A DNA stretch of 64,000 bases. It comes from Arthrobacter silviterrae (GTDB taxonomy: Bacteria > Actinomycetota > Actinomycetes > Actinomycetales > Micrococcaceae). A program made the translations under genes and the position numbers. The stretch spans positions 1 through 64,000 of the forward strand of contig NZ_JAAKZI010000014.1 of NCBI RefSeq assembly GCF_011045165.1, written 5' to 3'. The notes below the pieces were generated by a model. It was not told where the DNA came from. It worked only from the letters and a program-made list of their open reading frames with translations, and ran no database searches. Below are positions 2,548 through 10,030 of the stretch, piece by piece (position 1 is the first letter of the stretch; the number at the start of each line of letters is the position of its first letter).

Positions 2548-3768
2548 CTATTTGGTGCTGGCGGTTTCAATGGTGGATTTATGGCCCGCCATGCCGGCCT
2601 GTTTAGCGCGCGCGTGGGCCTGCGGCAAAGCCGCCACAAAGGCGTCAACGTCCGCGGGGCCGGATGTATGCCCCAGGCTGAACCGCTGGGCGCCGCGGGC
2701 CGTGTCCTCGTCCAGGCCCATGGCCAGCAGCACGTGGGAGGGACGGGGCACCCCGGCCGTGCAGGCGGAGCCGGTGGAGGACTCGATCCCGGCCATGTCC
2801 AGCAGGAACAGCAGCGAATCCCCTTCGCAGCCCGGGAAGGTGAAGTGGGCGTTGCCGGGGAGCCGTCCGCCGGGGCTAACGGCCGGGTCCACGCCCCGCA
2901 GAACGGCTTCGGGGACCAGTTCCCGGACGGCGGCGATGATGCGGTCGCGGAGCCCGGCAATCCGGGCGCCCTCCACATCCAAGTGCGAGGTGACGTCCTC
3001 GGCAGCCGCGGCAAAGGCGGCAATGCCGGCGGTGTCCAGGGTGCCGGAGCGGACCTTGCGTTCCTGCCCGCCGCCGTGCTGCACGGGGGTGAGGTTCACG
3101 GCGCGTCCCAGCAGGAGGGCGCCAACGCCCACCGGCCCGCCGATCTTGTGGCCACTGATGGACATGGCGGCCAGGCCCGATTCGCGGAAGTTGATGGGCA
3201 CCGAGCCGAAGGCCTGCACCGCGTCCGAATGCACGGGAATGCCGTGGGCGGCGGCGAGCGCCACGACCTCAGCGATGGGCTCCACCGTGCCCACCTCATT
3301 GTTGGCCCACATGCACGTAATGAGGGCCACGGTGTCCGCGCCGCCGCTGTCCAGTTCCTTTTTCAGCGCGTCCAGGTCCAGCACGCCGGTGGCATCCACC
3401 GGGATCCAGACGGCCTCGGCGCCTTCCTGCGCTTCGAGCCACTCCACGGTTTCGTGCACGGCGGCATGCTCCACGGTGGAGACCAGGATCCGGGTGCGGC
3501 GGGGATCGGCTGCGCGGCGGGACCAGAACAGGCCCTTGACGGCGAGGTTGTCCGCCTCTGTGCCGCCGGAGGTGAATATGACCTCGCTGGGGTGGGCGCC
3601 GGCCGCCAGGGCGATGGTTTCGCGCGCCTGCTCCACCGTGGCCCGGGCACGGCGGCCTGCGCCGTGCAGGGAGGACGGATTGCCGCTACGGGAAATAACG
3701 GAGGTCAGTGCGGCGAGGGCCGGGGCCGAAATAGGCGTGGTCGCCGCGTGGTCAAGATACACGGGCAC
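2548..3768 (-). CDS. Cysteine desulfurase, NifS/IscS type
   Basis: A PLP enzyme that takes sulfur from cysteine and passes it on as persulfide. Visible features in the 406 residues: N-terminal YLDHAATTP, PLP-stacking H101, D182 in HSDAVQ, the PLP-lysine K208 in SISGHKIGGP, and the persulfide cysteine C336 in STGSACTAG, within the long class-I loop. The start MPVYLDHAATTP is at the expected place. The gene precedes mnmA on the same strand, so a main job is probably tRNA thiolation, but Fe-S cluster assembly is also possible. No IscU- or Suf-type scaffold gene is in the window. Confidence 0.93.
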   Translation of the reverse strand: MPVYLDHAATTPISAPALAALTSVISRSGNPSSLHGAGRRARATVEQARETIALAAGAHPSEVIFTSGGTEADNLAVKGLFWSRRAADPRRTRILVSTVEHAAVHETVEWLEAQEGAEAVWIPVDATGVLDLDALKKELDSGGADTVALITCMWANNEVGTVEPIAEVVALAAAHGIPVHSDAVQAFGSVPINFRESGLAAMSISGHKIGGPVGVGALLLGRAVNLTPVQHGGGQERKVRSGTLDTAGIAAFAAAAEDVTSHLDVEGARIAGLRDRIIAAVRELVPEAVLRGVDPAVSPGGRLPGNAHFTFPGCEGDSLLFLLDMAGIESSTGSACTAGVPRPSHVLLAMGLDEDTARGAQRFSLGHTSGPADVDAFVAALPQAHARAKQAGMAGHKSTIETASTK

Positions 3769-5489: not shown

Positions 5490-6176
5490 TTATGGGCCCT
5501 TCGGGACAATCCGCGCACAGCAGTGCGAGAGGTTGCTGTCCGGCTCAATGACGTGGCTGTTGTCCCCGCAGCCGGCCAGCACCCCGTTCAGGAGCGCGCC
5601 GTTGAGCGAGCAGACCACCCCGGTGTGCTCCCGGGAAAGCTGGTGGAACGGACAGTTGGCCATGATGGTCCCGCCTTCGCCGTCCGGGCCTGGATCGTAC
5701 CCGGTGTTTTCCAGGACGACGGCGATGCTGCCAGCCTGGGCACCCAACTCCCTGCCGGCGTCGAACGCCACGGTGGCCAGCGCATCCCGGACCTCAACGC
5801 CGGAATCCATGGAATGCTGCACGGCGGCGGCCAGGAGCTCGGCAGCCAGGTCATAGTGGCGGGCCGGGACGGAGACGCCAACCTCGGCCAGCGCCACGGT
5901 GTACAGCTTGGTGGGGCGGCCGGAACCGGGGCCCGTCCGCACCCCCACCTTGCGGAAATCCACGTCCAGGATCCGATCGGCCACCATCCTGTCCAGGTGG
6001 GCGCGGACGGTGCTCTTGGGCAGGTCCAGCGCTTCGGCGCAATCATCCCGGCTGAGGGCCCGCGGACTCCGGCGCAGCAGCTCAAAAAGCGTCTTGCGCA
6101 CCGGATCGCCCAGGGACGCCACGGCACTGAGCCGCTCCGCCTCGCTCAGGGATGCCTGTTGCTGGACTTTGTTCAT
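5490..6176 (-). CDS. SufR-like HTH regulator with Cys-rich C-terminus
   Basis: A 228-residue regulator. Residues 15-75 form an ArsR/DeoR-type winged helix (LGDPVRKTLFELL, then STVRAHLDRMV), followed by GSGRPTKLY, a signature of SufR-like proteins. Near the C-terminus are C175, C189, C203 and C219-C220, with spacings C-X13-C-X13-C-X15-C. This is close to the Fe-S ligand pattern known for SufR (C-X12-C-X13-C-X14-C). It probably binds a cluster and represses the divergent folE cluster; an inverted repeat lies over the folE -10 box. No suf genes are nearby, so its target is likely the pterin cluster. Cluster binding and target are inference. Confidence 0.75.
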   Translation of the reverse strand: MNKVQQQASLSEAERLSAVASLGDPVRKTLFELLRRSPRALSRDDCAEALDLPKSTVRAHLDRMVADRILDVDFRKVGVRTGPGSGRPTKLYTVALAEVGVSVPARHYDLAAELLAAAVQHSMDSGVEVRDALATVAFDAGRELGAQAGSIAVVLENTGYDPGPDGEGGTIMANCPFHQLSREHTGVVCSLNGALLNGVLAGCGDNSHVIEPDSNLSHCCARIVPKGP

Positions 6177-6231
6177 GACTGCGTGCCTTCAATTGTGTTG
6201 TTGTCCGGGGCCGTCCTTTATGACGCCCCAC

Positions 6232-6280
6232 TTGACGCTTCGAGCCTGCGCTTCTAAAGTCAAGAATACAAGATTTAGAA
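6232..6280 (+). promoter_or_regulatory. folE promoter with operator-like inverted repeat
   Basis: TTGACG (6232-6237) and TAAAGT (6255-6260) are spaced by exactly 17 bp, a good primary-sigma promoter. TTCTAAA (6252-6258) and TTTAGAA (6274-6280) form a perfect 7-bp inverted repeat that covers the -10 box and the likely start site. This suits repression by the divergent regulator. Confidence 0.65.
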
Positions 6281-6291
6281 AGGATCAGCAC

Positions 6292-6897
6292 ATGTCAATT
6301 ACTAGTGCCGCCCTCCCCGACCTCCTCGCCTATGAGGAATCTGCTCTGGATGCAGCGCCATCCATTGACCTTCCAGCGGCACAAGCGGCCATTGCCGATT
6401 TCCTCCGGGCACTGGGCCGTGACGTTGACAGCCCGCACCTTTTGGACACTCCGCGCCGCGTGGCAGCAGCCTACGCTGAAATGCTCACCCCGCGCGACAC
6501 CACGTGGACAACGTTCCCCAATGAGGAAGGGTACGCCGGGCTGGTGCTGGTCAAGGACATCCCCTTCCACTCCCTGTGCGAGCACCACCTGCTGCCATTC
6601 CGCGGCGTGGCCCATGTGGGCTACCTGCCGGGCGAAAGGCTGTTCGGCCTCTCCAAGCTGGCCCGCGGCGTGGAACTTTTTGCCCGCGACCTCCAGGTCC
6701 AGGAACGATTGACCCAGCAAGTGGCAGACTGGCTGGAAGAGACGCTCTCACCCCGGGGCGTCGGGGTGGTCCTGGAGGCTGAGCACATGTGCATGTCCCT
6801 GCGCGGCGTGGAAGTTTCCGGCTCCCTGACCCGCACCTCGGTGTTCACCGGCGAGCTGGCGGGCGAAGGCCCCCTGCGCGCACAATTCCCGGGCTAA
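6292..6897 (+). CDS. folE: GTP cyclohydrolase I
   Basis: Converts GTP to 7,8-dihydroneopterin triphosphate, the first step of folate and pterin synthesis. The 201 residues show TPRRV at 53-57, zinc ligands C96 and H99 in SLCEHHLLPF, and H165/C167 in EHMCMSLRG, the third zinc ligand being C167. The ATG at 6292 has AAGGA eight nt upstream; the open frame runs further up but crosses the promoter. It heads a run with a reductase, a DHPS paralogue and a RibD-like reductase, without folB or folK. It may be a second copy with the housekeeping folate operon elsewhere; that cannot be checked here. Confidence 0.92.
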   Translation: MSITSAALPDLLAYEESALDAAPSIDLPAAQAAIADFLRALGRDVDSPHLLDTPRRVAAAYAEMLTPRDTTWTTFPNEEGYAGLVLVKDIPFHSLCEHHLLPFRGVAHVGYLPGERLFGLSKLARGVELFARDLQVQERLTQQVADWLEETLSPRGVGVVLEAEHMCMSLRGVEVSGSLTRTSVFTGELAGEGPLRAQFPG

Positions 6898-6909
6898 CAC
6901 CCCACATTT

Positions 6910-6938
6910 TTATTCAGGAAACGCGTTATTCAGGAAAC
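6910..6938 (+). repeat. 13-bp direct repeat upstream of the reductase gene
   Basis: TTATTCAGGAAAC-type units occur at 6910-6922 and 6926-6938, 16 bp apart, identical over at least 12 bp. They fill the short gap between folE and the reductase gene. They could be a small duplication or an RNA/protein site. Confidence 0.6.
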
Positions 6939-6966
6939 AAGGACTTCCACGGAAAGAGTTTCAATC

Positions 6967-8205
6967 ATGAGTGAATCAACCACCACCCCCGGCATGGTCA
7001 TCATTGGCGGAGGCCTCACCGGCGCCACGGCAGCCGAGACCCTCCGCAAGGAAGGCTACGCCGGTCCGGTGACGATTGTCGCCGACGAACCCGAGATTCC
7101 CTACCAGCGCCCGCCGCTGTCCAAGGGCTTCCTGTCCGGCAAGGAGGGCGAGGATGCCCTGCTGCCGCTGGCCGCCACCTGGTACGGCGAAAACAATGTC
7201 ACAGTGCTCACCTCCACGGCAGCCACCGCCGTGGACCCCGCCGCGCACACCGTCACGCTCGCCAACGGCGAAACGCTGCCCTACGCCAAGCTGCTGATCG
7301 CCACCGGAGCCTCGCCGCGCGTCATCCCCTTCAAGGGTGTGGAGCTCGACGGCGTGCACTACTTCCGCAGCAAGGCGGACTCGGTTGCCATGAAGGAACT
7401 GCTTTCCGCCGGCGGGCACAACCTGGTCATGATCGGTTCCGGCTGGATCGGCATGGAAATTGCCGCCACGGCCCGCGAGCTGGGCAACAACGTGGCTCTG
7501 CTGGGACTGGAGGACGTGCCGCTGTCCATCGCGATCGGCAAGCAGCTGGGCGGGGTGTTTGCCGCCCGCCACGAGGAGGCAGGCGTGAAGTTCGTGCTTC
7601 CCTCCAGTGCCGCCGAAATCCAGGGCACGGACGGGAAGGTCAGCTCCGTGCTGACCACCACCGGGGAAGTCCTGCCGGCGGACCTGGTGGTTGTCGCCGT
7701 CGGCGTTGTCCCGAACATTGGGCTGGCCAAGGATGCCGGGCTCACCATCAACAACGGCATTGAGGTCACCGGCAGCCTGGCCACCTCGGACCCGGACATT
7801 TTTGCCGCCGGCGACGTGGCCAACTCCCTGCACCCGGTGACCAACGCCTACGCCCGCTCCGAGCACTGGGCCAACGCCATTGCCAGCGGCAAGGTGGCCG
7901 CCAAGTCCATGCTGGGCCAGGACGCGGTTCTGGATGACATCCCCTACTTCTACACCGACCAGTTTGACCTGGGCATGGAGTACTCCGGCTTTGGCGCGCT
8001 GACCAAGGACGCCGACGTGGTGGTCCGCGGGGACCTCGCCGCCCGCGAATTCATTGCCTTCTGGGTGCTGGAGGGCCGCGTTGTGGCAGGGATGAACGTG
8101 AACATCTGGGACGTCCAGGACGCCATCAAGGACCTCATCTCCTCCGGCCGCACAGTCGACACGGCCAAGCTGGCTGACCCGAAAACGCCGCTAGAGGCTA
8201 TTTGA
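6967..8205 (+). CDS. FAD/NAD(P)-dependent ferredoxin-type reductase
   Basis: A 412-residue flavoprotein of the rubredoxin/ferredoxin reductase type that moves electrons from NAD(P)H to a small iron-sulfur or other acceptor. The FAD-binding Rossmann motif GGGLTGATAAETL is near the start, followed by YQRPPLSKGFLSG. A second Rossmann motif for NAD(P)H, GSGWIGMEIA, lies near residue 157, and AAGDVAN closes the FAD site. The C-terminal part matches the reductase C-terminal domain. No ferredoxin, P450 or Rieske gene is adjacent. Its place between folE and the DHPS paralogue suggests a redox step in pterin chemistry, which is inference. Confidence 0.88.
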   Translation: MSESTTTPGMVIIGGGLTGATAAETLRKEGYAGPVTIVADEPEIPYQRPPLSKGFLSGKEGEDALLPLAATWYGENNVTVLTSTAATAVDPAAHTVTLANGETLPYAKLLIATGASPRVIPFKGVELDGVHYFRSKADSVAMKELLSAGGHNLVMIGSGWIGMEIAATARELGNNVALLGLEDVPLSIAIGKQLGGVFAARHEEAGVKFVLPSSAAEIQGTDGKVSSVLTTTGEVLPADLVVVAVGVVPNIGLAKDAGLTINNGIEVTGSLATSDPDIFAAGDVANSLHPVTNAYARSEHWANAIASGKVAAKSMLGQDAVLDDIPYFYTDQFDLGMEYSGFGALTKDADVVVRGDLAAREFIAFWVLEGRVVAGMNVNIWDVQDAIKDLISSGRTVDTAKLADPKTPLEAI

Positions 8206-9185
8206 TGGAGGGGATGACTACTCTGCAGCCCTCCACCACCGCAGCCGGCTCAGCGGCGCCGTTTTACACGCCGCCGCTGCTCCACGCCGTTCACCACTTT
8301 GGTGCCCGGACCCTGGACTTCAGCCGGCAGGTGGCGCTCATGGCCATTGTGAACCGGACTCCGGATTCGTTTTACGACGGCGGCGCCACCTTTGCGCTCG
8401 ACGCCGCGGTGGCTGCGTCGCTGGCCGCCGCGGAGCAGGGCGCCGACTGGGTTGACATTGGCGGGGTCCCGTTTGCTCCGGGCCCGCCGTTGACCGCAGG
8501 CGAGGAGGGCGACAGGGTGGTCCCCGTCATTGAGGCGGTTTCGGCTGCCAGCGACGTGATCATTTCCGTGGACACGTTCCTGCCGGAGGTGGCGGCGCGC
8601 AGCATTGCCGCCGGGGCGCACGTCATCAATGACACCACGGGGCTGGCCAATCCCGAGCTGGCCTCCGTGGTGGCGGAGTCCGGCGCGCACCTGATCATCA
8701 CGCATTCACTGGCCAGGCCGCGCACCGTCTACCCGCATCCGCACTATGTGGATGTGGTTGCCGAGGTGGCCGCCTTCCTGCAGGAAAAAGTGGAGCTGGC
8801 CGTCTCCCTGGGCGTCCCGGCCCAGAAGATCATCATCGATCCGGGGCACGACCTCAACAAAAACACGCTGCACACCCTGGAAATCACCCGCCGGTTCCAG
8901 GAAATTGCCGCCCTGGGCTACCCGACCCTGGCCGCCGTGTCCAACAAGGACTTCATCGGCGAAACGCTCAACCAGGACAAGTCGGAGCGCCTGGAGGGTT
9001 CCCTGGCCAGCGGCGTCATTGCCATCCTGGGCGGCGCCCGGATTCTGCGCATGCACAATGTGGCCTCCGCCAACTCCGCCATCCGCATGACGGAGGCCGT
9101 GCTGGGCTGGCGCGCCCCTGCGTACCTCAAACACAACATGGGTGACGTCAACGAGCCGGCCCACCCCGCAGGAAACCAGCAGTGA
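8205..9185 (+). CDS. FolP2-type dihydropteroate synthase paralogue
   Basis: A pterin-binding TIM barrel of the DHPS family, 326 residues. It has MAIVNRTPDSFYDGG (about 46-60), VDIGGV where true DHPS has a DIGGES-type loop, VDTF, INDTTG, and DPGHDLNKN where FolP has a DPGxGFxK loop. The RTPDSFYD wording is that of mycobacterial FolP2, which did not replace FolP in published tests. The pABA side therefore looks altered while the pterin pocket is kept. The start is taken as ATG 8205 (AGAGG 7 nt upstream, overlap with the previous stop); ATG 8214 is possible. It overlaps the next gene by 4 bp. Confidence 0.85.
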   Translation: MEGMTTLQPSTTAAGSAAPFYTPPLLHAVHHFGARTLDFSRQVALMAIVNRTPDSFYDGGATFALDAAVAASLAAAEQGADWVDIGGVPFAPGPPLTAGEEGDRVVPVIEAVSAASDVIISVDTFLPEVAARSIAAGAHVINDTTGLANPELASVVAESGAHLIITHSLARPRTVYPHPHYVDVVAEVAAFLQEKVELAVSLGVPAQKIIIDPGHDLNKNTLHTLEITRRFQEIAALGYPTLAAVSNKDFIGETLNQDKSERLEGSLASGVIAILGGARILRMHNVASANSAIRMTEAVLGWRAPAYLKHNMGDVNEPAHPAGNQQ

Positions 9186-10030
9186 TTGAGCGGGTCTTCC
9201 CGGCGGCGGACGGCTCCGAAGCGCTTCCCGGTTCCGAAGCGCTTCCCGGGGCCCTGCCTGCCGAAGGACTGTCTCCCGGGGCCCTGCCTTCCGGGGGGCT
9301 GTCTGACAGCGGGCTGCTCAAGCTGTACGCCGCGGGCCGCCCGGCGGAGGCGGCCTCCCCCTGGGTGAGCTTCAACTTCGTCGCCAGCATAGACGGTGCG
9401 GCCACGGTGGACGGCCGCTCCGGCACGCTGGGCAACGCCGCCGACCAGCACATTTTCCAGCTGCTGCGCCGCCATGCCGACGTGATCCTGGTGGGCGCCC
9501 AGACCATCCGCACCGAAGGCTACGGCGGCCAGCTCCTCAGCAAGCAGGCACAGAAATGGCGCCGGGAACACGGGCTGGTGCCGCATCCGCCACTGGCCAT
9601 CGTGTCCGGGTCGCTGGACCTTGACCCGCGGCTGCCTGTCTTCCACGACGCCCCGGCCACCCCCTATGTCTTCACCACGGCGGCAGCGCCGGCCGACCGC
9701 CGGGCCGCACTGTCCGGCGTCGCGCAGGTCATGGATGCCGGGGCGGAGGCGCTCGACGCCGGCACCCTCCTGGCTTTGCTGTCCTCGCTGGGGATGCCGC
9801 GCATCCATTCCGAGGGCGGGCCCACCCTGCTGGGCACCTTCCAGGCTGCGGGCCTGGTGGACGAGCTGTGCCTGACCGTGTCGCCGCTGCTGGCGGGTGG
9901 ATCGGCGCGGCGCATCTCACATGTGCATCCGGGTGCGGCCCATGCAACAGGCCCGCAGCGGATGGAGCTGGCCCACATCCTGAAGGCCGAGTCGATGCTG
10001 TTCCTGCGCTACCTTCGCCCCCGTCCCTGA
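9182..10030 (+). CDS. RibD/DHFR-fold reductase (pyrimidine reductase family)
   Basis: A 282-residue RibD C-terminal-domain protein starting at GTG with a GTGA overlap. Core motifs: WVSFNFVASIDGAATVDGRS, then VILVGAQTIRTEGYG, and IHSEGGPTLLG followed by LVDELCLTVSPLLAGG. The family reduces a uracil riboflavin precursor, but the related mycobacterial Rv2671 acts on dihydrofolate. Beside a GTP cyclohydrolase and a DHPS paralogue, a pterin substrate is plausible. The N-terminus has a low-complexity insert of imperfect tandem repeats (GSEALP twice, then GALP units; DNA about 9208-9310) ahead of the fold. Substrate remains unknown. Confidence 0.82.
   Translation: MIERVFPAADGSEALPGSEALPGALPAEGLSPGALPSGGLSDSGLLKLYAAGRPAEAASPWVSFNFVASIDGAATVDGRSGTLGNAADQHIFQLLRRHADVILVGAQTIRTEGYGGQLLSKQAQKWRREHGLVPHPPLAIVSGSLDLDPRLPVFHDAPATPYVFTTAAAPADRRAALSGVAQVMDAGAEALDAGTLLALLSSLGMPRIHSEGGPTLLGTFQAAGLVDELCLTVSPLLAGGSARRISHVHPGAAHATGPQRMELAHILKAESMLFLRYLRPRP

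What the first reader, a model, noticed from the sequence alone, without database searches (positions are those of the whole stretch)
5490..10030. Candidate dedicated pterin pathway under a SufR-like Cys-rich repressor
Seen: folE, an FAD ferredoxin-type reductase, a FolP2-type DHPS paralogue and a RibD/DHFR-like reductase follow each other with 1-4 bp overlaps between the last three, and a regulator with four or five spaced cysteines is divergent. Known: FolP2-type proteins keep the pterin site but failed as DHPS in mycobacteria, and the RibD-like Rv2671 reduces dihydrofolate. Inference: the set makes or repairs a modified pterin (not plain folate), switched by Fe-S or redox state. folB and folK are missing, which argues against a simple second folate operon.
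Basis: partly seen in the sequence, partly recalled or inferred. Interest (0 to 1): 0.68.

Follow-up and report, generated by a model that had tools for sequence, protein, structure and literature searches.

The report
Iron-sulfur-sensor-type regulon for orphan pterin pathway
A soil bacterium carries, besides its normal folate genes, a second small set of pterin genes that seems to be switched, together with one membrane-protein gene elsewhere in the genome, by a regulator resembling known iron-sulfur nitric-oxide sensors; it offers a way into what an unexplained gene shared with mycobacteria (folP2) does.

Summary
In detail: regulator (REG), folE, FAD reductase (FDR), FolP2-type protein and Rv2671-type RibD reductase lie as described, with 1- and 4-bp overlaps between the last three. 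A complete folE-folP-folB-folK operon and a DHFR exist elsewhere, so this is not the folate operon.

(2) All 79 FolP relatives readable there keep the pterin-site residues (one Asp is Glu in 4) but lack the DHPS loop-2 Ser-Thr-Arg. (3) REG's cysteine spacing (23 of 23 genus genomes) equals that of ArnR, a [4Fe-4S] NO-responsive repressor, not SufR. (4) TCTAAA-N15-TTTAGA overlaps the folE promoter; in 23 genus genomes all 42 exact copies lie at two promoters: folE (23) and an unlinked DoxX-like membrane gene (19). A homologue of that gene sits inside the module in one Microbacteriaceae MAG. (5) FolP2 and RibD genes are neighbours in six actinobacterial families.

Best reading: a redox/NO-responsive two-promoter regulon making a non-folate tetrahydropterin. 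Module and regulon are well supported by sequence; repressor binding, signal, chemistry and product are inferred.

The parts
5490..6176 (-). REG: winged-helix regulator with C-x13-C-x29-CC in its C-terminal part; divergent from folE
   Evidence: HTH_20 28.8 bits; Cys positions; motif in 23 of 23 genus genomes
6232..6260 (+). promoter-like site TTGACG-N17-TAAAGT before folE
   Evidence: sequence and spacing; same layout in 23 of 23 genus genomes, read by eye
6252..6280 (.). inverted repeat TTCTAAAG-N13-ATTTAGAA, overlapping the -10 (presumed REG operator)
   Evidence: binding by REG is inferred
6292..6897 (+). FolE: second GTP cyclohydrolase I
   Evidence: PF01227 198.8 bits; NF006826 198.4 (cut-off 162) and NF006825 191.4 (174), below the cut-off of TIGR00063 (171.7 against 181.6)
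6967..8205 (+). FDR: FAD-dependent ferredoxin-reductase-type enzyme
   Evidence: Pyr_redox_2 211.8 bits, Reductase_C 52.9 bits; nearest NCBIfam models HcaD/AndAa, all below cut-off in the part listed
8205..9185 (+). FolP2-type DHPS-fold protein without the loop-2 Ser-Thr-Arg
   Evidence: TIGR01496 250.4 bits (cut-off 162.6); best PDB sequence 2vp8; loop 2; model
9182..10030 (+). RibD C-terminal-type reductase, Rv2671-like, no deaminase domain
   Evidence: PF01872; NF010663 195.3 bits (cut-off 184); best PDB sequence 4xrb

Best explanation
A two-promoter regulon for a non-folate tetrahydropterin. REG, an ArnR-type Fe-S repressor, sits on TCTAAA-N15-TTTAGA at the folE operon and at an unlinked DoxX-like gene and lets go when its cluster is damaged (NO or redox stress). 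The extra FolE raises dihydroneopterin triphosphate; FolB and FolK of the C19 folate operon are shared and give hydroxymethyl-dihydropterin pyrophosphate; FolP2 still forms the pterin cation but joins it to a nucleophile other than pABA; the RibD-like enzyme reduces the product to the tetrahydro form; FDR supplies electrons to keep it, or the enzyme that uses it, reduced; the DoxX-like protein is a membrane redox partner. Shown by sequence: module, operator, two-promoter regulon, loop-2 change, cysteine spacing. Inferred: binding by REG, signal, every catalytic step, product, role of FDR and of the DoxX-like protein.
For: Separate complete folate operon and FolA. FolP2-RibD in tandem in 70 of 80 loci in differing flanks, and neighbours in 11 of 138 class genomes from six family labels (lists read by hand). 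FolP2 rows: pterin-site residues kept, loop-2 Ser-Thr-Arg lost in 79 of 79 readable rows of 80; model superposes on DHPS chains; loops 1 and 2 make the PPi, Mg and pABA site (PMC10328974 passages). All 42 exact operator copies in 23 genomes are at the folE or DoxX-like promoter, against 1 for the reversed control; genomes lacking the DoxX-like gene lack the second site. A homologue of the DoxX-like gene (43 percent identity) lies between REG and folE in L036. Cys spacing as in ArnR. A REG homologue is divergent from FolP-RibD in another family, L166.
Against: No chemistry or expression was tested. FolP passes the DHPS equivalog model TIGR01496. 35 of 80 loci have FolP-RibD without FDR, FolE or REG, so these are not needed for the core function. 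The DoxX-like gene is missing in 2 of 23 genus genomes and broken in 1. L045 has REG and folE but no site within 2 mismatches. REG was not compared with the ArnR sequence itself. No known pterin-using enzyme was found (PF00351 and PF02898: 0 of 23).
Confidence: 0.5

Rival explanations
1. Auxiliary, stress-induced folate synthesis: FolE lifts pterin supply, FolP2 is a slow or sulfonamide-tolerant DHPS and the RibD-like protein a second DHFR, so the module tops up folate under stress.
For: FolP passes TIGR01496; Rv2671 is reported to act as a DHFR (citing papers, passages); three of the genes are folate-type.
Against: Loop-2 Ser-Thr-Arg lost in 79 of 79 readable rows; M. leprae folP2 does not complement an E. 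coli folP mutant (PMC1971073 passage); full folate operon and FolA present; FolB and FolK not included.
Confidence: 0.2
2. Simple tetrahydropterin supply: FolE and the RibD-like reductase make a free tetrahydropterin for an unknown enzyme, and FolP2 only binds, carries or methyl-transfers a pterin.
For: FolE plus a reductase suffices for a reduced pterin; FolP2 keeps the pterin site.
Against: No PF00351 hydroxylase or NO synthase in 23 of 23 genus genomes; the conserved pair is FolP2-RibD, not FolE-RibD; the PPi-side residues Asn, Arg and His are kept in 79 of 79 readable rows.
Confidence: 0.15
3. REG is a metal sensor (ArsR-type, for example zinc) and the module answers metal limitation, not Fe-S or NO stress.
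For: HTH hits are to HTH_20/ArsR-type models, below NCBIfam's metalloregulator cut-off; Zn binding was noted for ArnR preparations (PMC12343034 passages).
Against: Cys spacing equals that of ArnR, whose three Cys are needed for cluster and DNA binding, in 23 of 23 genus genomes.
Confidence: 0.1

Closest known systems
Mycobacterial FolP2 (Rv1207, PDB 2vp8)
   Same: Best sequence match among solved structures; shares NRTPDSFYD, SNKD and GE, and loss of loop-2 Ser-Thr-Arg
   Different: Loop 2 reads GGVKAGPG there and GGVPFAPG-like here; DPGHDLNK here against DPAHDFGK; in class genomes the window type scores 450 bits or more with its profile, the broad FolP2 tier 262-327; no gpgS beside the window gene
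Rv2671 (PDB 4xrb), RibD-like DHFR analogue
   Same: Best sequence match; reductase domain only
   Different: Encoded in tandem with FolP2 here; activity untested
ArnR of Corynebacterium glutamicum
   Same: Winged helix plus C-x13-C-x29-C
   Different: ArnR represses narKGHJI and hmp; here the sites are at pterin and DoxX-like genes; sequences not compared
SufR (Rv1460)
   Same: Winged helix and C-terminal Cys in a similar region
   Different: C203/216/244 is x12/x27 against x13/x29; no suf gene seen beside REG
Folate operon folE-folP-folB-folK
   Same: FolE and a DHPS-fold protein
   Different: Present separately at C19, its FolP1 with GGESTRPG; the module has no folB or folK and adds FDR and a RibD-like gene

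Membership tests
Dihydropteroate synthase (DHPS) | Family model over cut-off | tested here: met
   TIGR01496 250.4 bits, cut-off 162.6
Dihydropteroate synthase (DHPS) | Pterin-site residues (Asn, Asp, Asn, Asp, Lys, Arg positions, roles recalled) | tested here: met
   Kept in the window; in 79 of 79 readable rows of 80, except one Asp that is Glu in 4
Dihydropteroate synthase (DHPS) | Loop-2 Ser-Thr-Arg of the pABA/PPi loop | tested here: not met
   FolP1 GGESTRPG; window GGVPFAPG; 0 of 79 readable rows have it, L055 is gapped there
Dihydropteroate synthase (DHPS) | Makes dihydropteroate from pABA | not testable with these tools
   needs enzyme assay or complementation
Mycobacterial-type FolP2 | Closest sequence relative and shared signature | tested here: met
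   2vp8 best of 35 PDB sequences listed; NRTPDSFYD and SNKD shared
Mycobacterial-type FolP2 | gpgS beside the gene | tested here: not met
   Window neighbours are FDR and RibD; gpgS is beside FolP in L168
Rv2671-type reductase | Single RibD_C domain, family model over cut-off | tested here: met
   RibD_C only; NF010663 195.3 against 184; below the cut-offs of NF010664 and NF010665
Rv2671-type reductase | Reduces dihydrofolate | not testable with these tools
   needs enzyme assay
SufR | Cys spacing x12/x27 | tested here: not met
   REG x13/x29
SufR | Next to a suf operon | tested here: not met
   Neighbours are folE and a subtilase; a lone NifS-type desulfurase gene lies further off at 2548-3768
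ArnR | Three Cys spaced x13/x29 after a winged helix | tested here: met
   23 of 23 genus genomes, 11 of 11 cluster loci (six of these are the same genomes; L047 has lost the REG N-terminus)
ArnR | Sequence relationship to ArnR itself | not tested
   ArnR sequence not fetched
ArnR | Binds a [4Fe-4S] cluster, loses DNA on NO | not testable with these tools
   needs purified protein
GTP cyclohydrolase I | Family model over cut-off | tested here: met
   PF01227 198.8 (27), NF006826 198.4 (162); TIGR00063 not reached
DoxX | Pfam DoxX over cut-off | tested here: not met
   L036 copy 21.3 bits against 23.6; own copy no DoxX match; hence only 'DoxX-like'

The most novel reading that the evidence does not exclude
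FolP2 and the Rv2671-type reductase, two actinobacterial orphans, are consecutive enzymes of one undescribed pathway that makes a new tetrahydropterin conjugate (a folate or methanopterin analogue with a different arm); in this genus it is a nitrosative or redox-stress cofactor, controlled together with a DoxX-like membrane protein by an ArnR-type Fe-S repressor as a two-promoter regulon.
Probability: 0.4. Interest if true: 0.87.

Novelty: new variant of a known kind. Interest (0 to 1): 0.64.

Why it matters
The role of FolP2 has been open at least since M. leprae folP2 failed to complement an E. coli folP mutant (PMC1971073 passage). The operons tie it to a partner (an Rv2671-type reductase), and in one genus to an inducible-looking regulon with a defined operator in a bacterium that is not a known pathogen (judged from named relatives), so the product could be sought by comparing pterins of a REG deletion and an operon deletion. 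It would also give ArnR-type regulators a new kind of target.

Tried and rejected
SufR identity: dropped on cysteine spacing. The REG paralogue at C19:152134 (29 percent identity) was checked for a suf operon; it stands next to a gene with multicopper-oxidase domains, not suf genes by eye. Simple folate operon: rejected by the C19 operon. RibD-like protein as the only DHFR: rejected, FolA at C21. Supply of a pterin hydroxylase or NO synthase: 0 of 23 each. The 8-bp-arm operator scan with up to 3 mismatches in the own genome gave 4 places against 14 for the reversed control, so that scan proves nothing by itself; the exact 6-bp-arm scan of 23 genomes decided. PHROGs scan of REG: nothing. PDB sequence search of REG: only two hits near E 0.5. 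Single-sequence model of the L036 DoxX-like protein: mean pLDDT 60.3, no fold search made. The gene between FolP and RibD in L167-L169 and beside FolP in L170 is one family (37-47 percent identity over the main stretches); no Pfam hit in the three scanned, no NCBIfam hit in the two scanned. Site not found within 2 mismatches in L045 and L047; L045 has an imperfect look-alike by eye, and L047 has lost folE and part of REG. Script errors mended: tags double-counted, redone; wrong cysteine pattern (0 of 35), corrected; column numbers off by one, corrected. The background count (3 hits in 804,264 six-frame residues of 22 loci) includes REG of L026 itself, so 2 chance hits. Literature: ten searches, listings only; passages read in six papers. 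No held paper has both Rv2671 and folP2, none the five-term set for the module; this covers only the held open-access library.
Full report
What is there. The five genes of the finding are real and placed as stated: REG 5490-6176 (-); folE 6292-6897, FDR 6967-8205, folP2 8205-9185 and ribD-like 9182-10030 (all +). FDR and folP2 overlap by 1 bp, folP2 and ribD by 4 bp; folE to FDR is 69 bp. The nearest solved sequences are Mtb dihydropteroate synthase 2 (2vp8) and Rv2671 (4xrb). The organism is an Arthrobacter-type Micrococcaceae, judged by the named relatives.

Is it just folate? No. The same genome has a second folE and folP on contig C19, followed by folB and folK (Pfam FolB 128.5 and HPPK 126.5 bits), and a FolA-type DHFR on C21. 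Pfam finds exactly two FolE and two FolP genes in this genome. Further copies of folB and folK were not searched for.

Conservation. Arrangement by tblastn: FolP-RibD alone 35; FDR-FolP-RibD 20; REG-FolE-FDR-FolP-RibD 10 (in L013 folE is only a remnant); FolP without RibD in tandem 10 (three of these have a RibD-like gene on the other strand nearby); RibD upstream of FolP 2; and three single variants (L009 begins at a contig end before REG; L047 has no folE; L079 has a different folE and no FDR). So RibD is in tandem in 70 of 80 and FDR directly upstream in 32 of 80. The flanks differ: NifS and MnmA-type genes on one side and DnaJ and a SpoU-type methylase on the other in many Micrococcaceae, a two-component pair and helicase-like genes (by eye) in many Microbacteriaceae, which speaks for a functional unit.

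Class-wide. In 138 genomes drawn from the class, the FolP profile A2 scores 451 bits or more in 6 genomes and 262-327 bits in 104 (counted by hand from the list, which was cut further down). FolP and RibD-like places within 5 kb on one strand: 11 of 138 genomes (by hand, both lists cut, so a lower bound), from six family labels. In L168 the order is GpgS (NF010496, 374.2 bits, cut-off 262), FolP, an unnamed gene, RibD, all on one strand: a mycobacterial-type, gpgS-linked FolP2 beside an Rv2671-type gene. The unnamed gene recurs at FolP in L167, L169 and L170. In L166, from another family, a REG homologue (36 percent identity) is divergent from FolP-RibD.

FolP2 site. Of 80 rows, L055 is gapped in this part; in the other 79 the DHPS pterin-site positions N50, N142, D212, K248 and R282 and the neighbouring H284 are kept, and the Asp of SVDT is kept in 75 and Glu in 4 (roles recalled from DHPS). 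Own FolP1 reads GGESTRPG in loop 2; all 79 rows have V or A, P or K, F, then A, S, G or K in place of E-S-T-R; R of SRK is N, and F of DPGIGF is L. The AlphaFold model from 25 rows (mean pLDDT 85.5, pTM 0.84) finds DHPS chains best; in the second look the first row is the Y. pestis transition-state complex (Z 37.3, rmsd 2.0, 273 aligned, 34 percent identity), with the other DHPS rows close behind. PMC10328974 (passages) says that loops 1 and 2 bind pyrophosphate and Mg and form the pABA substructure. So pterin activation is probably kept and pABA use is doubtful. That is inference: FolP still passes TIGR01496.

Regulator. REG has Cys at 175, 189, 203, 219 and 220. ArnR has Cys179/193/223 (PMC12343034 passages), the same x13/x29 spacing; SufR Rv1460 has C203/216/244 (PMC6034842 passages), x12/x27. 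C-x13-C-x29-CC is present in 23 of 23 genus genomes and 11 of 11 cluster loci (six of the 11 are the same genomes), and in L166. Two chance hits occur in 804,264 six-frame residues of 22 loci. A cluster on REG is a good guess, not a result.

Operator and regulon. The spacers between REG and folE share a promoter and an inverted repeat. In 23 genus genomes TCTAAA-N15-TTTAGA occurs exactly 42 times, the reversed control once; base composition predicts about 0.006 per genome. All 42 lie at two promoters: 23 before folE and 19 before a DoxX-like gene (places compared; in G020 folE and REG are on different contigs). The DoxX-like gene is in 21 of 23 genomes. Of the 21, 19 have the exact site, G007 a site one base shorter (by eye), and G003, whose copy carries a stop, none. 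G001 and G012 lack the gene and have only the folE site. At folE the site overlaps the -10; at the DoxX-like gene it lies downstream of a TTGACA and 10-11 bp before the start codon, which fits repression. Independently, L036 (a Microbacteriaceae MAG) has a homologue of that gene, 43 percent identical, between REG and folE, with a one-mismatch site. Among the 68 loci without REG or the module's folE, 2 (L015, L027) have an exact site, both just before FDR-FolP-RibD.

Mechanism offered. As in the best explanation. Rv2671's DHFR activity is taken from citing papers (passages); the primary paper and the M. leprae folP2 paper were not held.

Novelty. Each family is known, and PMC1971073 already suggested that folP2 serves another pathway. 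The FolP2-RibD pairing, the regulon with a DoxX-like gene and an ArnR-spaced regulator over pterin genes were not met in the passages read; one search found no held paper with both Rv2671 and folP2, none with the five terms of the module.

Noticed in passing
L094:8057-8695 (own genome, C19:152134-152706): A REG-like paralogue (29 percent identity) with similarly spaced cysteines stands next to a large gene with cupredoxin and multicopper-oxidase domains; it may be the genome's nitrite/NO-type regulator.
   Followed up: partly
L167:7284-8030, L168:7510-7980, L169:1726-2331, L170:4966-5721: One unnamed protein family is encoded between FolP and RibD (L167-L169) or beside FolP (L170) in other actinobacteria; a third candidate member of the pathway. 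No Pfam hit in three scanned.
   Followed up: partly
G126:C10 (L166) and G126:C121: This genome has a FolP of the usual FolP2 tier (277 bits) and a second FolP (254 bits) that sits with RibD and a divergent REG homologue.
   Followed up: partly
L015:7677, L027:7650: Exact operator copies before FDR-FolP-RibD in two loci that have neither REG nor folE nearby; REG may act from elsewhere in those genomes.
   Followed up: no
L013 and L047: folE is reduced to a remnant (L013) or gone together with part of REG (L047) while FDR, FolP and RibD remain: decay of the FolE/REG part.
   Followed up: no
window 9200-9310: The N-terminus of the RibD-like protein holds short direct repeats (GSEALPGSEALPGALPAEG...), absent from Rv2671 in the alignment.
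   Followed up: no
L091:1290-2320 (own genome, C19 around 80 kb): Translated frames around the DoxX-like gene repeatedly contain HLTWMF...NIHVKCPF, which points to an interspersed DNA repeat.
   Followed up: no
L018: In Arthrobacter agilis UMCV2 folP2 is kept beside nifS but no RibD-like gene was found in the locus.
   Followed up: no
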